29,462 nucleotides of DNA, from the IMG/VR virus record IMGVR_UViG_3300010375_000043, positions 1-29,462 of that record. One strand, given 5' to 3'. Positions 36 through 28,206 of the stretch are shown one piece after another (the first letter of the stretch is position 1; every line of letters begins with the position of its first letter). The position numbers and the translations under genes are program-made. This DNA is from a virus. Under the pieces are notes generated by a model. That model was not told the DNA's origin. It saw nothing but the letters and a program-made list of their open reading frames with translations, and ran no database searches.

Positions 36-121
36 GCCGGTGTGGCGGAATGGTAGACGCGGCGGACTCAAAATCCGCTTCTGGCGACAGAGTGGAGGTT
101 CGAGTCCTCTCACCGGTACCA
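36..121 (+). tRNA. tRNA-Leu (anticodon CAA)
   Basis: An 86-nt cloverleaf with encoded CCA end. The acceptor arms are GCCGGTG and CACCGGT (the first pair is G-T). The anticodon stem GCGGA/TCCGC encloses the loop CTCAAAA, giving anticodon CAA, which reads UUG. A long class II variable arm and the T-loop TTCGAGT follow, as expected for leucine. It is the only convincing gene on the plus strand. The phage late operon ends about 110 bp downstream, so this tRNA is the likely attachment site of the prophage. The second att copy is not in the window. Confidence 0.95.
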
Positions 122-538: not shown

Positions 539-1027
539 CTATAGCAGGCTGGCCAGGTTATCGACCTCGCCGGCGCAGTTGGTGGCGGCGATGGCGTGGC
601 GGATGCTGACGTTCGCCAGGAAGGTGGCGTCCCACGGGATCATGGGCATGGTCTCGCCGCTCTGGCCGCCTGGCACCGGCACCTGAGTGAGCGGCTCGCC
701 GAGCGCGGCAAGGACGTGCTCCTTCGCCAGCGTGTCGGCACCGTAGGCCGTGATCTCTGCCTGAGAACTGTTATGGCGGAACTCGACCACAATCTCCTTG
801 TTCTCGACGCACAGCTTCGTGCTGCCGTCGGCGTTGGTGAGACGCGCGGAGGTGTAGTAGGTCAGGCCGCCGTTGTTCTCCTGCCAGGTACGTTCCACGT
901 ACACTGCCACGTACTCGCCACTATCCAGCTGTACCGCGAGTTCGCACGGGTATAGGCCCGGGGCAGCGACATCGCCGTTATTGGGGTCGCGCAGGGGCGG
1001 CTGGGGGGAAACCTTGGTGTAGCTCAT
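539..1027 (-). CDS. Hypothetical distal tail protein downstream of J
   Basis: A 162-residue protein (MSYTKVSPQPP...) lying 9 bp after the J-like gene in the same direction. The sequence is mixed, without a signal peptide or membrane segment. The middle (about residues 25-85) looks beta-rich, with alternating polar and hydrophobic residues. In lambda-like phages this slot after J often holds a side-fibre or tail-tip accessory protein, and that is my inference here. No enzyme motif is visible. Confidence 0.75.
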   Translation of the reverse strand: MSYTKVSPQPPLRDPNNGDVAAPGLYPCELAVQLDSGEYVAVYVERTWQENNGGLTYYTSARLTNADGSTKLCVENKEIVVEFRHNSSQAEITAYGADTLAKEHVLAALGEPLTQVPVPGGQSGETMPMIPWDATFLANVSIRHAIAATNCAGEVDNLASLL

Positions 1028-1036
1028 GCTGCCCTC

Positions 1037-4000
1037 TCAGGTCGGTTTCAGGTTGTGGTGGCCGATGTAGCGCCCGCGCTGGCGACCCGCCAGGAAGACG
1101 CTGTTCTCGCAGGTGATGTGGATCACCTCGCGGTCGCCGATGTCCTCGACCGCGACGACGCGCTCGTGCCGGTGCTCGCCGAAGTCGCTGACCGGGATGA
1201 CCTGATCGATCAGATCCGGCGCCAGCACCAGCGTCTCGTCGCTACAGAGGATCGGAGCGCTGGTCGAGCAATCCAACGAGATGCCGCTCTCAGTGATGAT
1301 GCGCACGCACGGCGCCAGCTTCCGCTGCGCATAATTCACCCTGCCCGCGCGGCGCGCGAAGGTCGCGGCGTCCACTACCAACTCTAGCTTGTCGCCCACA
1401 CCGACGCTGCCGGCCGCACCATGGCCGGGAAGCCAGCTGTCGACCGTGACGCACTGGCCGCCGCCTGAGCCGCCGCCGGTGCCACTCGTCGGATAGGTCA
1501 CGCTGAAGGAGCCGAGGAAGAGTCGATTGTTGTTCGCCATCGCGGTGATGTTGCTCGTCGTCGCCTGCAGCGTCTGGCTACCGCCGGCCAGCAGCGGGTC
1601 ATCGTAGTAGAGGTAGTATTTCACCGTCGTGCCAGCCGAGCCGCTGACCGACACGCTGGAGGCGTTGTAGGAGACGGTATCGCTGCCGGCCTGCAGGGTC
1701 GCGGCGCTCGCGCTGATCGTCGCCGACGTCGTCGTGGCGGTATAGCTGAAGGTGAGACCGCTCCAGCCGCTGCCATAGTTGCCGAAGGTGACCGTGGGCA
1801 GGTTCTTCTGCGTCGACAGCGTGCCGGCCACTTCATTGGCTAGGTTTTGTGCACGGGTCAGGTGCACATCGTAGAAGTACGACACGCCACCACCGGTGTT
1901 CGGATTTGCCAGTCGAATGAAGCAGTACGCGGTGCCAGACGGTGCAACACCAGATGCCGACACCTGGTTCCATGCATTGAACGCCGCGGCGGTGCCAGAG
2001 CTGCTACCGAGAAAGGTATTGCTGGAACTGAAGAAGTAGATGATCAGCTGCGCCAGCGCGCCGGTCTGAGAATAGATCCAGCACTTCCCATAAACCGTAT
2101 CACCAGCCGAGCATTTGTAGTTTGGCGACTGTGCACCGAACCCACTGGGCGACGATCCGCTGAAAGATACCTGCAGACATTGTGTCGACGCGAATGGCGA
2201 AGCGGTACTCGTGAAATACGCCAGTGTCGCGCCATTGAATGCTGACCATCCTGGGATGTTCCCAAACGAGTCCAGCGGTGCCTGAAAGTTGGCATTGCCA
2301 ACGACGATCGCCGATCCAGGCATCACCGGCGTCTTTGCGTAGCTGCTTCCGTTCGGCACCTCATCGACGGTGCTTGGCTGATAGGTCCATGCCATGTCGT
2401 CGAAGTTGTAGTAGCCGCCGGTGCCGGTGCCAACGCCAGGGGAGATGATCGCCCACGCCGCATTCGACGGCGCGACACCGCTCACGGAGAGCAACTGCAC
2501 GCCGTTGCCCGCCGTGCCGGACTTCACTGGCGAGGCCGGCGACGCAATGTCGGTGCCGCTGATGTCCTGGAACAGGATGCGGATCGCCGGGGTGCCCGTG
2601 GGCGACGAGATTCCGTTGACCTTGCACGTCGCCTTGATGACCTGCCCGGCGACGACGGGTGCGCGGTAGGCATTGCGAAGGAAGGTCGTGGTGGTGCTGC
2701 CGCGGTGGACAACGTAGGTTGTCGTGCCCGGGTTGGGGCCGTTAGTTCCAGTCTCCGCATACCAGTTGCTGGCGTCACTCTCCGGCGTCCAGCCCTGCAG
2801 GCCGAGATCGAAGCCCGGATTGACGATGCCGACCAGCGTCTGGTTCGCCGTCACGTCAGCACCGGCCTGCGCAGGCTTCAGCGAGTCGACGCTCTGACCG
2901 GTGGTGTAGTTGACCTGGTTCGCCGCGGTGACGAACAGGCCCTGAAGATTGTCGAAGCGCGCGGTCCAGGAGTTGAGCGTCGCTGCAGCCGAGCTGCTGG
3001 TATTCAAGGCCTCGAGGTAGACGTAGGCGACGGCGTAACTCGCGCCAGCGGGCACGGTGAACTGGTTGGTGGAGTACTTCGTGTAGGTCGGGTTCGGCGA
3101 GTTCGCCGCCAGCGTCGGTCCGGCGAAGCTGTTGCCGCCCGACACCATGTTGCCGCTGGCGTCGTAGAACAGCATGCCGACCGCGGCGGTCCAGCTGATC
3201 GTCGCGCCGTTGCCGCCAGCCGACTCGGTGCGGATGTCGCCGTTGTAACTAAGGATCTGGCCGGCGGAAACGTAGATCGGCGCGGAGACCAACCGGCACT
3301 TCGCCAGCGCGCTCGCTGCCACGGAGAACCCGGCCACGGCGCTGATCTGCATGTCGTTGTTGCCGACGTCCGGCACCGTGCTGTCTCGGCCCGCAGTGAA
3401 GGCCCCCGTGGTCATCTCGGAGATGTACCAGGAGTCACAGACTGGCGTGCCCAGCAGCGTGTTTCCCGCCGGCGCATGGATGTTGTTCAGCTCGAACGAG
3501 GGGTTCGGGATGAAGTTGGAGCCGGACGCCGGTGCCGCGTACTGCCCGGCGAGCTGGTCATAGAGCTTCGGTGGCGCCAGCACGTCCGACGCGCCAAGGA
3601 CATGGCTATAGGCCGTCACGGCGGACAGCTGCTCCATGGCGCTGCCGAAGACGTTGAAGCTGACGAACTTGAAATACACCGTGTTGCCGCGCTTCCCCTG
3701 ATCGTAGGGGATCCGGAAGATGGCCTCGTCGATGCGCACGAAGACGTCGCCGGAGACGTGGGCCTGGTTCGTGGAACCGTAGCCGGCGCGGCGCAGGTAG
3801 CTGAGCTGGTAGGACAGCGTGCCGGTGAGCGTGGCATCGCGGAAGGAGATCAGTTCGCCGCCTGAGGCGCCGCCAATGAAGGCGAGCTGCCGCCAGTTGT
3901 CGGCGTCCGCAGTGGTGCCACTGTTGAGCTGTCCGCGCAGGAGCGACAGCTGCGGCGTATGCGTGGTGTCGGGATCGGCACCAACGGCCAGCGCAGACGT

Positions 4001-5524
4001 CAGCGCGCCGTAGCGCGCCGCGCCGGTGATGCGGCCGACGCGCTGATAGGTGGTGTTGTCCTCGGAGGCGTAGACGTCGCAGCCGCCCCAGTACTGGCCG
4101 ATGCCGGCAACAGCGATCCAGGTCTCGAACCCTCCCTGGGTGAGTAGCCCCGGGGCATTGAAGATGACCGGAGGTGACACGCTGCCGGGCGACACATTGA
4201 AGTCCTGCGAGTAGCCGCCGCTGGCCTGCGGGGCGTACTGCGGGGCTGAGGCGACGCCGATGGGAAGCTCCTCGGCCTCGAACTCCAGCTCGTCGTTCTC
4301 CTCGGTGACCTTGGTGATGCGCACCAACTCGCGATTCAGACCGGCGTTCGGGTCGGTCAGCGTGATGATGTCCATCGGCTCCAGCAGCATGTAACGCATG
4401 CCGGTGCGGAAGTGATAGGTCTTCCGGATATAAAGGTCGCGCTGCAGCATCAGCTGCGCCACGTCGCGCGCGACCTGTGCGGAGGTGATGCCATTCACCG
4501 AGATGCTCGACATCGGGAAGGCGCCACGGCTGTCGATATCGGCCTGGTCCTTGGCCTCCTGCGAGACAGTGTTGTAGCTGTTGGCGCGGTCGTTGTACTC
4601 GATGCGCACCGAGTTGTGGCACTGCTCCAACTCCTTCCAGTCCAGCTCGACGCCGCAGTCGCTGCCGTCTTCGTACAGGAAATCGTCCGGCCCGAGGTCG
4701 TACAGCGGCGTCAAGTTCGGCGTGTAGGTGCCGTAGGTGCCCGTGATCGCGGCATCGCCGTAGGGAAGCAGCAGCAACTGGTTGTAGCTCCACACCGGCG
4801 CGAAATTGCACCACTTCGCCATGTCGTTGACGAAATCCGCCGCGGTGCGCTGCTGATCCTCGATCGGCGACATGAAGAGACCGCGCGCCAGGCTGTAGGC
4901 GCGCAGTTGAGCGGTGCTGCCGAGGTAGCCGCCGAAGCCAGCCCCGTGCACGGAATCGGTCAGATAGTCGGTCAGGATGTCGCTGGGAAGCGCATCATCG
5001 ACCACGCCTGGGTTGTAGAGCTGCAGCCCCTTCACCTCGAAGTTGAGGTTCGGCAGGCCGGTGCTGCTCCCGAGTTGCAGCGCCGAGGCGCCGACATAGG
5101 CCATGCCGCTGTAGGCGATCGCCTGGGAGGAGTTGTAGCTCTGCAGCCAGGTCCATGGCGACTGCGGGCTGGTGCCATTGAACAGGGTGAAGCCGAGGTC
5201 CGACAGCGTATGCAGCTCCTTGTCCTTCCACACCGTGCCGATGCCATTGATCGGTCCTTCAGACAGCAGCAGGATCACGCCGGTGGTGTAGGTATAGCTG
5301 GTCGACGTGGAACCGCCGCCACCACCGCCCTTGCCGCCGCTGGACTGCTTCTCGGTGTGCGCCGTCGGGATCCAGTTGCCGTACCAGCCCAAGTTTCCGG
5401 CGATCCGGTTCTTGCCGTAGAGCAGCGGCAGCACTACGCCGAAGGTGCTGGTCTGCACCTGGAGCGCGGATACCGCCTTGGTGCTCTGGCTCTTGGCCTT
5501 CTTGCCGCCGAAAACTCCGCTCAC
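1037..5524 (-). CDS. Tail tip / host-specificity protein J with C-terminal Hint domain
   Basis: This 1495-residue protein starts at GTG, overlapping the stop of the NlpC/P60 gene as GTGA. Residues 1-650 are the J-like tip body; a Gly run lies near 62-75. Three segments beginning near residues 667, 897 and 1071 look alike (an N-P-x-F or N-x-N-F opening followed by a W-bearing stretch) and resemble galactose-binding-like or CBM-like modules; they may contact the host receptor. A further beta-rich segment starts near 1238. After a Gly/Ser linker, residues 1358-1495 form a Hint (hedgehog/intein) domain. J proteins sit at the tip of the siphophage tail, bind the receptor and help trigger DNA ejection. 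Module 3 (about 1860-2300) is less GC-rich than its surroundings. Confidence 0.93.
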   Translation of the reverse strand: MSGVFGGKKAKSQSTKAVSALQVQTSTFGVVLPLLYGKNRIAGNLGWYGNWIPTAHTEKQSSGGKGGGGGGSTSTSYTYTTGVILLLSEGPINGIGTVWKDKELHTLSDLGFTLFNGTSPQSPWTWLQSYNSSQAIAYSGMAYVGASALQLGSSTGLPNLNFEVKGLQLYNPGVVDDALPSDILTDYLTDSVHGAGFGGYLGSTAQLRAYSLARGLFMSPIEDQQRTAADFVNDMAKWCNFAPVWSYNQLLLLPYGDAAITGTYGTYTPNLTPLYDLGPDDFLYEDGSDCGVELDWKELEQCHNSVRIEYNDRANSYNTVSQEAKDQADIDSRGAFPMSSISVNGITSAQVARDVAQLMLQRDLYIRKTYHFRTGMRYMLLEPMDIITLTDPNAGLNRELVRITKVTEENDELEFEAEELPIGVASAPQYAPQASGGYSQDFNVSPGSVSPPVIFNAPGLLTQGGFETWIAVAGIGQYWGGCDVYASEDNTTYQRVGRITGAARYGALTSALAVGADPDTTHTPQLSLLRGQLNSGTTADADNWRQLAFIGGASGGELISFRDATLTGTLSYQLSYLRRAGYGSTNQAHVSGDVFVRIDEAIFRIPYDQGKRGNTVYFKFVSFNVFGSAMEQLSAVTAYSHVLGASDVLAPPKLYDQLAGQYAAPASGSNFIPNPSFELNNIHAPAGNTLLGTPVCDSWYISEMTTGAFTAGRDSTVPDVGNNDMQISAVAGFSVAASALAKCRLVSAPIYVSAGQILSYNGDIRTESAGGNGATISWTAAVGMLFYDASGNMVSGGNSFAGPTLAANSPNPTYTKYSTNQFTVPAGASYAVAYVYLEALNTSSSAAATLNSWTARFDNLQGLFVTAANQVNYTTGQSVDSLKPAQAGADVTANQTLVGIVNPGFDLGLQGWTPESDASNWYAETGTNGPNPGTTTYVVHRGSTTTTFLRNAYRAPVVAGQVIKATCKVNGISSPTGTPAIRILFQDISGTDIASPASPVKSGTAGNGVQLLSVSGVAPSNAAWAIISPGVGTGTGGYYNFDDMAWTYQPSTVDEVPNGSSYAKTPVMPGSAIVVGNANFQAPLDSFGNIPGWSAFNGATLAYFTSTASPFASTQCLQVSFSGSSPSGFGAQSPNYKCSAGDTVYGKCWIYSQTGALAQLIIYFFSSSNTFLGSSSGTAAAFNAWNQVSASGVAPSGTAYCFIRLANPNTGGGVSYFYDVHLTRAQNLANEVAGTLSTQKNLPTVTFGNYGSGWSGLTFSYTATTTSATISASAATLQAGSDTVSYNASSVSVSGSAGTTVKYYLYYDDPLLAGGSQTLQATTSNITAMANNNRLFLGSFSVTYPTSGTGGGSGGGQCVTVDSWLPGHGAAGSVGVGDKLELVVDAATFARRAGRVNYAQRKLAPCVRIITESGISLDCSTSAPILCSDETLVLAPDLIDQVIPVSDFGEHRHERVVAVEDIGDREVIHITCENSVFLAGRQRGRYIGHHNLKPT
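1040..1453 (-). other. Hint (intein-like) domain at the C-terminus of J
   Basis: The last 138 residues of the J-like protein. The block opens with Cys directly after a Gly/Ser linker ending GGGQ (C-V-T-V-D-S-W-L-P-G), has a V-G-V-G-D block near domain residue 17, a T-E-S-G-I-S-L-D-C-S-T block near 54-64, and ends H-H-N-L-K-P-T. The order Cys1, VGD, TxxG...L..T, terminal HN is that of Hint domains. The usual +1 Cys/Ser/Thr after HN is Leu, so self-cleavage is more likely than splicing. Confidence 0.8.
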
Positions 5525-25900: not shown

Positions 25901-26798
25901 TTTTCGCTGCCTCGAGTTCGTGAAGGGCCTGCAGGGTTTTGCTCATCGGTGGCGCGGTGTGGCCATAGACCTGCCGCGGCGGCCCGGTGCTGATCGCCAT
26001 GGCGCCCTCGGCGTGTCGGCTGCGCGCGGTGGTAATGGCCCAGGCGAAGGGTTTCGTCTTGCCAGCGCTGATCGCTTCCGCTGCGGTGTCGGCCAATGCC
26101 TCGGGCGTGACGCCTTCCTGGATGGCGGCGCGGAGGTCGGGGTGACTGGGGTTGGTGTGGGCACAGCCCCGCTGCCGCATCAGCAGGCACGCCCGCCCTT
26201 CCTCGGTCGGCACCCTTGTAGCTACCTGCGGGCTTGCCTCAGTACTACCTACGTAGTTATTGGCTTGTGGCTTGTGGCTAGTGGTAGCCGTGTTCACACT
26301 CGTGACATGGCGTGACATGTCACGGTAAGTCACGCGTGACATCACTGTATAGTCACGCGTGACATGTGCGGTGTGGAGGTCGCGAAGCTCGGCCATCGTG
26401 GCCATCGCATCTGGCACGATTCCCACCTCCCGTAGCTCGGCGAACATCTGCATCCGGCGCTCACGGGTGCGACGCTGGCGCTCCGCCTCGTTGCTGCGCT
26501 TCTCGTCGGCACCGATTGCCCGCTCGCCGAACTTGGCTATCTCCGCATCGGCGCGCGCGTTGTGGCGCTTGCCGTCGGGGCCAATCGGAAAGAAGCGATC
26601 AGCGACCTTTCGTACTGCCGCCTTATCGGCTGCGCTGCTTGCCCCAGCGATGACATAGAGCTCTGCCGGATCGGCGGGCAGCGGCGATTCCTCGGCGTAG
26701 TAGGTGAGCATCAGGCGCAGATAGGCGCCGTGCTCGACCAGGCTGAGGCGGGTCGTGTCGCGGAGGTAGTCGCCGGGGTAGAGCTCGAAATAGTTCAC
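25833..26798 (-). CDS. YdaU/DUF1376-type replication protein
   Basis: A 321-residue protein. The N-terminal domain (residues 1-90) starts M-N-Y-F-E-L-Y-P-G-D-Y-L-R-D-T and has H-G-A-Y-L-R-L-M-L-T-Y-Y, typical of DUF1376/YdaU proteins, which include winged-helix replication initiator-like proteins of prophages. A charged helix (about 90-120, E-R-Q-R-R-T-R-E-R-R) follows, then a low-complexity linker at about 140-200. The DNA coding the linker is the repeat cluster at 26301-26366. The C-terminal region is Ala-rich. It probably opens the phage origin and brings in helicase. ATGA overlap with the PP-loop gene sets the start. Confidence 0.85.
   Translation of the reverse strand: MNYFELYPGDYLRDTTRLSLVEHGAYLRLMLTYYAEESPLPADPAELYVIAGASSAADKAAVRKVADRFFPIGPDGKRHNARADAEIAKFGERAIGADEKRSNEAERQRRTRERRMQMFAELREVGIVPDAMATMAELRDLHTAHVTRDYTVMSRVTYRDMSRHVTSVNTATTSHKPQANNYVGSTEASPQVATRVPTEEGRACLLMRQRGCAHTNPSHPDLRAAIQEGVTPEALADTAAEAISAGKTKPFAWAITTARSRHAEGAMAISTGPPRQVYGHTAPPMSKTLQALHELEAAKNGTGLDHPGDQLRIAEADPAQP
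26301..26366. repeat. Repeat and palindrome cluster inside the replication gene; candidate origin
   Basis: CGTGACAT occurs directly at 26301, 26311, 26335 and 26358. A perfect 14-bp palindrome lies at 26311-26324. The 15-mer AGTCACGCGTGACAT is exact at 26328-26342 and 26351-26365, a 23-bp period, each with the 12-bp palindrome GTCACGCGTGAC. Just to the left (about 26240-26300) the DNA is less GC-rich. Lambda likewise has its origin iterons inside gene O. The role as origin is inference. Confidence 0.65.
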
Positions 26799-27736
26799 TC
26801 AGCTCCCCATTCGCATAGGCCGAGGTCAGAAGTGCAGCCACCACCTGTCTGCTGATCGAAGAACATGCCGTACTGACGGCCGCCACGCGTGGTGCGACTC
26901 CACTCAACCACGGTGCGGATGCCGGCATATGTTCCCGGACGATCCACATCAGTGGGATCAGTGACTGCCGGAAAGAAGGTCGCTGCGCGACGCTTGTTGG
27001 CGGAAGAGACCACACGCTCCCACCGTTCGATCCGATCAATATGATCTGGAAATCGGACAGCGATGGATCGAAGTTCACTCTTGCGGCAGTTGATGCAAGG
27101 CATGCAGCCGACCCTGTTCATGCCCTGGGCATAAAGCGGGTTCGGGGCAATGCCGTGCTTACGGTGCTGGTCCCATACGTCCTGAACGGACCAGCGGAAT
27201 ATCGGGCGCCATAGAACGGAGCCAGATTCGTGGTGGTTGTAGCGCGGCTGCTTAGCCCGGTTAGCGCTCTCATCGGCCCTTATCCCAAGCCATTGCAATA
27301 GCGGCCCAGCCTTCAGCATCGGCAGCACAACCTGCTCCGTAATCGGGATTTCTTTCAGTTCTCCAGTGCAGAACTGCGCCATCCTTGACGGGAATCGCCC
27401 CTTGCTTATGCAAAGATCAAGGTATGGATTGCCAGTCGGCTCGTGGAGTGCAGCGGCCTCCTGAACGATTTCGTCGGGGATGCCTTGCTTCGGCCACTCC
27501 CTGAGCAGGTATTCCCGATGCTGGGCGAGCTGACGAGAGAAGTCGGATCGTACGGTTTCGACTTTCGGTCCTCCGGTGCGTTCATGTAGCCGCGCCACGT
27601 ATTCGTAGGTAGCCTCGTGCTCGTTTCCGGTGTCAGCGAACACGGCACGAAATGGCCGGCCTGACTCAATGGCGAGCAAATAGACAGCCGTGCTGTCCTT
27701 TCCGCCGGACACGCTAACGAGGTGCTGCACGGTCAC
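26795..27736 (-). CDS. PP-loop ATPase, PAPS-reductase-like protein
   Basis: A 313-residue protein from GTG (GTGA overlap). The PP-loop S-G-G-K-D-S-T is at 10-16, binding ATP for adenylation. Q-F-C-T-G-E-L-K at 121-128 and G-I-R-A-D-E-S-A-N-R at 151-160 are usual for the phosphoadenosine-phosphosulfate reductase (CysH/DndC-like) superfamily. It carries extra cysteines at 211, 214 and 217 (C-M-P-C-I-N-C) and at 301 and 308, which could bind an Fe-S cluster or zinc. The classic CysH C-terminal E-C-G-I-H is not seen, so true PAPS reduction is doubtful. Phages carry such proteins near replication genes; the role is not clear. Confidence 0.85.
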   Translation of the reverse strand: MTVQHLVSVSGGKDSTAVYLLAIESGRPFRAVFADTGNEHEATYEYVARLHERTGGPKVETVRSDFSRQLAQHREYLLREWPKQGIPDEIVQEAAALHEPTGNPYLDLCISKGRFPSRMAQFCTGELKEIPITEQVVLPMLKAGPLLQWLGIRADESANRAKQPRYNHHESGSVLWRPIFRWSVQDVWDQHRKHGIAPNPLYAQGMNRVGCMPCINCRKSELRSIAVRFPDHIDRIERWERVVSSANKRRAATFFPAVTDPTDVDRPGTYAGIRTVVEWSRTTRGGRQYGMFFDQQTGGGCTSDLGLCEWGAE

Positions 27737-28206
27737 GCCGCATTCCCCCCGAACACCAGCGACCGCCACAGCGGCGTTGGCGAAAGATGCCGACGCTGGC
27801 TGACGCCGTAGCCGATGCGTTCGATGACCCCAGCCCGGGCGGCGCGCTGGAAGATGGCGCCCCAGGCGCGGGGATCGGCCGGTGAGCCGTAGCCCATGCG
27901 GTCCGCCATCGCCGTCAGCTCCTCGCTGATGAACTCGGCGTGGGTGGTGGCGTAGCGGTACAGGAAGCCATAGGCGAGATCCGGCCATTCATCGTCGCGA
28001 CGTGCCGCGGCGTCATGGGCGCGGTTCATGCCGGCATCGCGTTCGGCGCGCGCGGCGGTGAAGTCCAGGACGGACTGCTGCATGGGTTGCTCCTCGCGCT
28101 TCTGCGCGATCTGCTTGCGGATTGCGCCGACCACCGGCTCCCAACCGACCAGGTCGAGCTCGAGCGGCGGTAGCGAGTGGTCGGAGATGGCGGTTATGGG
28201 GCGCAT
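27733..28206 (-). CDS. Hypothetical early protein with possible winged-helix fold
   Basis: A 157-residue protein from M-R-P-I-T-A-I-S-D. An internal in-frame ATG at 28083 (M-Q-Q-S-V-L-D-F) has a much better ribosome-binding site (GAGGAG, 7 nt before) and would give 116 residues. The C-terminal half has A-D-P-R-A-W-G-A-I-F-Q-R-A-A-R-A-G-V-I, where the helix pair followed by Y-G-V-S-Q-R-R-H looks like a winged-helix domain. The family is not identified. Its stop overlaps the PP-loop gene as GTGA. Confidence 0.75.
   Translation of the reverse strand: MRPITAISDHSLPPLELDLVGWEPVVGAIRKQIAQKREEQPMQQSVLDFTAARAERDAGMNRAHDAAARRDDEWPDLAYGFLYRYATTHAEFISEELTAMADRMGYGSPADPRAWGAIFQRAARAGVIERIGYGVSQRRHLSPTPLWRSLVFGGNAA

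What the first reader, a model, noticed from the sequence alone, without database searches (positions are those of the whole stretch)
1040..1453. Self-cleaving (Hint/intein-like) domain at the end of a phage tail-tip protein
The last 138 residues of the J-like protein begin with Cys straight after a Gly/Ser linker, contain V-G-V-G-D and T-E-S-G-I-S-L-D-C-S-T blocks and finish H-H-N-L-K-P-T. This is the Hint fold layout. With Leu rather than Cys/Ser/Thr after HN, splicing looks impossible; cleavage at the N-terminal Gln-Cys bond is the likely reaction. The virion J could then lack this domain, or be joined covalently to a nucleophile (lipid, sugar or protein) at the tail tip, as hedgehog joins cholesterol. 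Its role in phage tails is, to my knowledge, not settled.
Basis: partly seen in the sequence, partly recalled or inferred. Interest (0 to 1): 0.75.

Follow-up and report, generated by a model that had tools for sequence, protein, structure and literature searches.

The report
Intein-like domain ending phage tail proteins
The tail-tip protein of this phage ends in a small domain with the fold of self-cutting inteins and hedgehog proteins; it belongs to an apparently undescribed family that many water and soil phages carry at the ends of tail proteins, with an active site changed in a way that leaves its exact reaction open.

Summary
Residues 1358-1495 of the J-like protein (window 1040-1453, minus strand) fold as a Hint domain: AlphaFold pLDDT 93.5, and every listed PDB match is an intein, hedgehog or BIL domain (Z up to 18.7). 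A profile of the family also finds solved inteins by sequence. No member gives a credible match in Pfam, NCBIfam or PHROGs, and no paper in the held library describes it.

I collected 60 distinct copies in 13 groups at 45% identity. All sit at the C-terminus of phage proteins, mostly after a run of glycines; where testable these are tail or baseplate proteins or lie near such genes. All 60 keep Cys1, the block-B Ser and the final His-Asn. All 60 lack the block-B His and block-F Asp. After the Asn comes a 4-19-residue tail that always holds a Lys.

The proposed reaction is only partly supported. In a DnaB intein, Gly before Cys1 plus loss of the block-B His abolishes the N-S acyl shift, so ordinary cleavage before Cys1 is not the default. 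Because Cys1 and Asn are both invariant, I favour self-processing at both ends (like an A-type BIL domain), with a substitute for the lost His. No reaction is shown. New variant of a known kind.

The parts
1037..5524 (-). J-like tail-tip protein, 1495 aa, that carries the domain
   Evidence: ORF; Pfam Phage-tail_3 5e-30 and Rcc01698_C 9.5e-15; PHROG 1101 'tail protein' 5.6e-100
1052..1453 (-). Hint domain, Cys1 to Asn134
   Evidence: AlphaFold2 pLDDT 93.5; Foldseek/VIA matches to inteins and hedgehog over residues 1-134
1451..1453 (-). Cys1 (block A nucleophile position), invariant in 60/60
1253..1294 (-). Block B, TESGISLDCSTSAP: Ser63 at the Thr position (60/60), Ala66 at the His position (Ala 51, Thr 9, never His)
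   Evidence: alignment to gp41-1 intein SEEH; counts
1085..1126 (-). Block F, VIHITCENSVFLAG; F4 Asp position is His112 here and never Asp in the family
   Evidence: alignment to gp41-1 D107; counts
1052..1066 (-). Block G, IGHHN; His133-Asn134 invariant in 60/60
1040..1051 (-). Tail LKPT after the Asn; a Lys lies in the tail in all 60 copies
1454..1486 (-). Gly/Ser linker SGTGGGSGGGQ before Cys1
   Evidence: sequence; family has Gly at -1 in 49/54, runs of 4-6 Gly in 42/54
1040..2878 (-). C-terminal half of J (residues 883-1495), 54% identical to a separate fibre protein in contig L001, where the N-terminal partner is a lambda-type J that has its own Hint domain
   Evidence: blastp; ORFs and PHROG_31 halves
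539..1027 (-). Next gene, 162 aa, function unknown; the same gene follows in L001 and L002
   Evidence: phmmer 1.2e-79 to L001, L002; no Pfam/NCBIfam match

Best explanation
A Hint-superfamily self-processing domain has been attached, after a flexible Gly linker, to the C-termini of tail-tip, fibre and baseplate-region proteins in many phages. It most likely removes itself from the tail protein during maturation, working like an A-type BIL domain. His133 drives cyclisation of Asn134 and frees the short Lys-bearing tail. Cys1 takes up the Gly-linker acyl group, which is then released to water or passed to an amine, possibly that of the tail. The virion protein would end in the Gly linker, bare or joined to the tail peptide. 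The lost block-B His and block-F Asp must be replaced by another residue or by a trigger. In the larger clade the extra His132, found exactly where position 66 is Ala, is the best candidate. Shown here: fold, position, conservation. Inferred: any bond breakage, its order, the acceptor.
For: Hint fold with end-to-end correspondence to mini-inteins. Across 60 copies in 13 groups at 45% identity, Cys1, Ser63, His133 and Asn134 never vary; in the 54-copy set the fully invariant columns were C1, S63, G123, H133 and N134, so four of five are Hint catalytic positions. Hedgehog-type chemistry alone would not need Asn, and C-terminal cleavage alone would not need Cys1. The domain sits on unrelated passengers (lambda-type J, Rcc01698-type J, DUF4815/VrlC-like, PHROG 15511 and others). 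J relatives 40% identical in Acinetobacter phages end without it, so it is an add-on, not a structural need. The tail is predicted unstructured (last ten residues mean pLDDT 49) yet always holds a Lys (60/60); Lys within the last three residues in 53/57 against 37/216 other ORFs of the same loci. A degenerate stand-alone paralogue in PhiXhv-12 has lost Cys1 and HN, showing what loss of constraint looks like.
Against: No reaction has been observed. Block-B His and F4 Asp, the main helpers of the N-S acyl shift, are absent in every copy, and Gly(-1) with block-B His->Ala was inert in Ssp DnaB (PMC6333167). The His132/Ala66 pairing is a single change on the tree, so it is weak evidence, and the Thr66 clade (nine copies) has no such His and would need another solution.
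Confidence: 0.5

Rival explanations
1. Hedgehog-like: only the N-terminal bond reacts. Cys1 makes a Gly thioester that is attacked by an outside nucleophile (protein amine, sugar, lipid), so the tail protein is cut or conjugated; the tail and Asn are incidental.
Against: Asn134 and His133 are invariant in 60/60, which hedgehog chemistry does not need; the helpers of the N-S shift are missing; no sterol-recognition-like extra region, the protein ends 4-19 residues after Asn.
Confidence: 0.15
2. C-terminal cleavage only: Asn134 cyclises and sheds the Lys-bearing tail, perhaps to free or expose something at the tail tip; the Hint domain stays on the virion.
For: Penultimate His and Asn invariant; N-S helpers lost; tail disordered but conserved in carrying Lys.
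Against: Cys1 and the block-B Ser would not need to be invariant; the Gly linker directly before Cys1 is conserved.
Confidence: 0.15
3. No chemistry: a retired Hint fold serving as a structural, receptor-binding or trimer-cap module at the fibre end.
For: Two catalytic helpers are lost in every copy; C-terminal tips of fibres are often receptor-binding or chaperone domains (general knowledge).
Against: Four Hint catalytic positions are invariant although most copies are only 23-40% identical to the window's domain; the one clearly degenerate copy loses exactly these.
Confidence: 0.2

Closest known systems
A-type bacterial intein-like (BIL) domains
   Same: Hint fold; Cys1; terminal His-Asn; no Cys/Ser/Thr needed at +1; attached to variable bacterial proteins (PMC7765530)
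   Different: Here block-B His and F4 Asp are missing; phage tail proteins; short Lys-bearing tail instead of a long C-terminal flank; structural match to the solved BIL 2lwy is lower (Z 15.5) than to the best inteins
Mini-inteins, class 1 (gp41-1, RecA, DnaB, CDC21-1)
   Same: Fold, Cys1, His-Asn, block order; found by profile search; gp41-1 also has Ser at the block-B Thr position
   Different: No +1 nucleophile, no block-B His, C-terminal rather than internal
Hedgehog C-terminal (Hog) domain
   Same: Hint fold (Z 18.4); C-terminal; Gly-Cys junction typical of the family
   Different: Keeps a terminal His-Asn; lacks T-x-x-H; no sterol-recognition region after the Hint fold
Tko CDC21-1 intein
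   Same: Naturally lacks the block-B His yet activates its N-terminal junction, by a Lys (PMC7765530)
   Different: A splicing archaeal intein; whether a Lys plays this part here is untested

Membership tests
HINT superfamily | Hint fold | tested here: met
   AlphaFold pLDDT 93.5; PDB matches all inteins/Hh/BIL at E <= 1e-3; Z up to 18.7
Class 1 intein | Cys or Ser at position 1 | tested here: met
   Cys in 60/60
Class 1 intein | Block-B T-x-x-H | tested here: not met
   S-x-x-A (51) or S-x-x-T (9)
Class 1 intein | Terminal His-Asn | tested here: met
   60/60
Class 1 intein | Cys/Ser/Thr at +1 | tested here: not met
   Leu in the window; in 54 copies +1 is V, A, I, M, L, N or G, with one Ser and one Thr
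A-type BIL domain | Conserved terminal His-Asn, +1 not required to be a nucleophile | tested here: met
   definition from PMC7765530
A-type BIL domain | Block-B His as in other Hint domains (own knowledge) | tested here: not met
A-type BIL domain | Self-cleavage at either end | not testable with these tools
   needs expression or mass spectrometry
Hedgehog Hog domain | Sterol-recognition region after the Hint fold | tested here: not met
   protein ends 4-19 residues after Asn
Class 3 intein | Cys at block F position 4 (WCT triad), no Cys1 | tested here: not met
   F4 is V, H, G, A, L, R, K, F, N or P, never Cys; Cys1 present
Named Pfam, NCBIfam or PHROG Hint families | Match to the family profile | tested here: inconclusive
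   no credible match for any of 49 members; single-sequence scans can miss distant kin

The most novel reading that the evidence does not exclude
Phages carry a self-excising end-tag on tail proteins: the Hint domain cuts itself out using a relocated or borrowed catalytic group in place of the block-B His, and joins the exposed Gly-linker end of the tail protein to an amine, either the freed Lys-bearing tail (splicing without a nucleophilic +1 residue) or a Lys of another virion or host molecule, giving a covalently modified tail tip.
Probability: 0.2. Interest if true: 0.85.

Novelty: new variant of a known kind. Interest (0 to 1): 0.62.

Why it matters
If the domain is active, the mature tail tip of many uncultivated (and several cultured Xanthomonas and Stenotrophomonas) phages is not what the gene predicts: it would be shortened, or covalently joined to something, at the very place that meets the host. 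It would be a self-processing step in tail assembly, and a natural Hint domain that works without the histidine usually held essential, of use for protein-ligation chemistry. Cultured carriers such as XacN1, DLP6, LucasX and PhiXhv-12 make it directly testable, and virion mass-spectrometry data for XacN1 are already public (PXD008065, PMC5852040).

Tried and rejected
Pfam, NCBIfam and PHROG scans of the domain gave nothing credible. The PDB sequence-search hits 5byo and other designed repeat proteins were set aside: they score only by summing many weak repeats. Trans-splicing between split genes was considered for L001/L002/L118/L119, where J is two ORFs with a Hint domain closing the first: rejected, because the second ORF starts afresh after a stop codon with no C-intein and no nucleophile. 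Head-to-tail cross-linking of a fibre trimer through the tail Lys was considered; once Asn cyclises no cross-link would remain, so it was not adopted. Toxin release as in polymorphic-toxin Hint domains was rejected: nothing but the short tail follows the domain. The Ala66/His132 versus Thr66/Thr-or-Ser132 covariation is perfect in 60 copies but is one change on the tree, so it is not used as independent evidence. Some scans failed or found nothing. Papers searched for Hint domains in phage tails described only inteins in terminase and similar genes; the library is open-access only, so prior description elsewhere is not excluded.

Full report
What is there. The window is a 29,462-base virus record with terminase, portal-Mu F fusion, tape measure, DUF2460, phiJL001 Gp84-type hub, NlpC/P60 and J-like genes, all on the minus strand. 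The J-like protein is complement(1037..5524), 1495 aa, with Phage-tail_3 and Rcc01698_C domains.

The fold. With 49 related sequences from the window and viral contigs, AlphaFold2 gives pLDDT 93.5 and pTM 0.88. Every one of the 50 PDB matches at E <= 1e-3 is an intein, a hedgehog autoprocessing domain or a BIL/BUBL domain. VIA-align scores 18.7 for a RecA mini-intein (rmsd 2.1 over 129 residues) and 18.4 for the hedgehog domain 1at0, pairing model residue 1 with residue 1 of the intein and, in many rows, residue 134 with its final Asn. Independently of structure, the family profile finds solved inteins by sequence: Pho CDC21-1 at E 1.4e-4, gp41-1 at 0.008 and 0.012, Mja KlbA at 0.034. In viral predicted structures the four best hits at E about 1e-11 to 1e-12 have query TM-scores of 0.89-0.91, followed by Hint and intein regions in terminases and other phage proteins. 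So the Hint assignment is secure.

The family. tblastn found the domain in Xanthomonas phages PhiXhv-12/15/16, XacN1 and LucasX, Erwinia phage Ep032 and Stenotrophomonas phage DLP6, on a Microbulbifer plasmid record, and, with profile-derived patterns, in roughly 75 viral contigs. The passengers differ: lambda-type J (PHROG 31), DUF4815/VrlC-like proteins (PHROG 358), PHROG 15511, PHROG 11610 and several with no family. Neighbours in two marine-type contigs are a PAAR protein (L038), and a baseplate hub-lysozyme and baseplate wedge genes (L028). In all copies read the domain is the C-terminus. PhiXhv-12 has two intact copies and one stand-alone degenerate copy; DLP6 has two; in L001 and L002 J is split into two ORFs joined by a TAATG overlap and both end in a Hint domain. 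L119 shows the same with a divergent second copy, and L118 shows the first copy, with no second found in its next ORF. The C-terminal half of the window's J is 54% identical to the second ORF of L001 although the N-terminal halves are of different J types, so fibre plus Hint moves as a block. J relatives in Acinetobacter and Pseudomonas phages, about 40% identical over 639 residues, end after what look like fibronectin-type repeats without linker or Hint.

The active site. Sixty distinct copies fall into 13 groups at 45% identity. Cys1, Ser63 (block-B Thr position), His133 and Asn134 are present in 60 of 60. The block-B His is Ala in 51 and Thr in 9; the block-F Asp (gp41-1 D107, by the alignment) is V, H, G, A, L, R, K, F, N or P. 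Residue -1 is Gly in 49 of 54 and a run of 4 to 6 Gly precedes Cys1 in 42 of 54. The residue after Asn is hydrophobic in most; one Ser and one Thr occur among 54. The tail after Asn is 4 to 19 residues and always contains Lys (60/60); Lys lies in its last three residues in 53 of 57, against 37 of 216 other ORFs in the same loci. In a marine member the tail is predicted disordered, so it is not simply a strand of the fold.

What this says about mechanism. Review data call the block-B His highly conserved and name two inteins without it, one a decayed gene and one that uses a Lys instead (PMC7765530). In Ssp DnaB, removing it with Gly at -1 makes the N-terminal junction completely stable, and bulky -1 residues rescue it (PMC6333167). 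This family combines the missing His with Gly at -1, the inert combination in that system. His132 is present exactly where position 66 is Ala (51/51) and is Thr or Ser where 66 is Thr (9/9), but this is one change on the tree. Invariant Cys1 argues against C-terminal cleavage alone, and invariant His-Asn against a hedgehog-type reaction alone. The reading that uses all conserved parts is two-ended self-processing like an A-type BIL domain, with the Lys-bearing tail either shed or re-joined. This is inference; no cleavage is shown here or, as far as the held library shows, anywhere.

Verdict. Fold and location confirmed; reaction open; family apparently uncurated. It is a new variant within the HINT superfamily rather than a new kind of system.

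Noticed in passing
window 36-121 (+): tRNA-Leu (anticodon CAA) at the very end of the record, on the strand opposite to the phage genes; possibly an attachment-site tRNA of a host chromosome.
   Followed up: no
L004 5423-5842 (PhiXhv-12, XYR92700): Stand-alone 139-aa gene directly after an intact Hint-bearing gene; it is a degenerate Hint copy without Cys1 and without His-Asn.
   Followed up: partly
L113 3-1652 (DLP6): An unannotated open frame at the start of the DLP6 record encodes a second protein with an intact Hint domain ending SHNVTKQIP.
   Followed up: partly
L001, L002, L118, L119: J is encoded as two ORFs with a TAATG overlap, and a Hint domain closes the first ORF (and often the second); in L001 the two Hint copies are from different branches of the tree.
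   Followed up: partly
L092 6441-7046 (PhiXhv-12): A gene annotated as a 2OG-Fe(II) oxygenase overlaps the end of a Hint-bearing gene by a few bases; it might modify the tail protein.
   Followed up: no
L012 4727-5839: An ORF that looks like an IS605-family OrfB/TnpB protein lies just downstream of a Hint-bearing gene (from reading the sequence only).
   Followed up: no
window 26795-27988 (-): Phage-encoded phosphoadenosine phosphosulfate reductase-domain protein.
   Followed up: no
window domain residues 49 and 62 (codons near 1307-1309 and 1268-1270, minus strand): Two further cysteines, Cys49 and Cys62, are nearly invariant (51/54 and 50/54) and might give redox control of Cys1.
   Followed up: no
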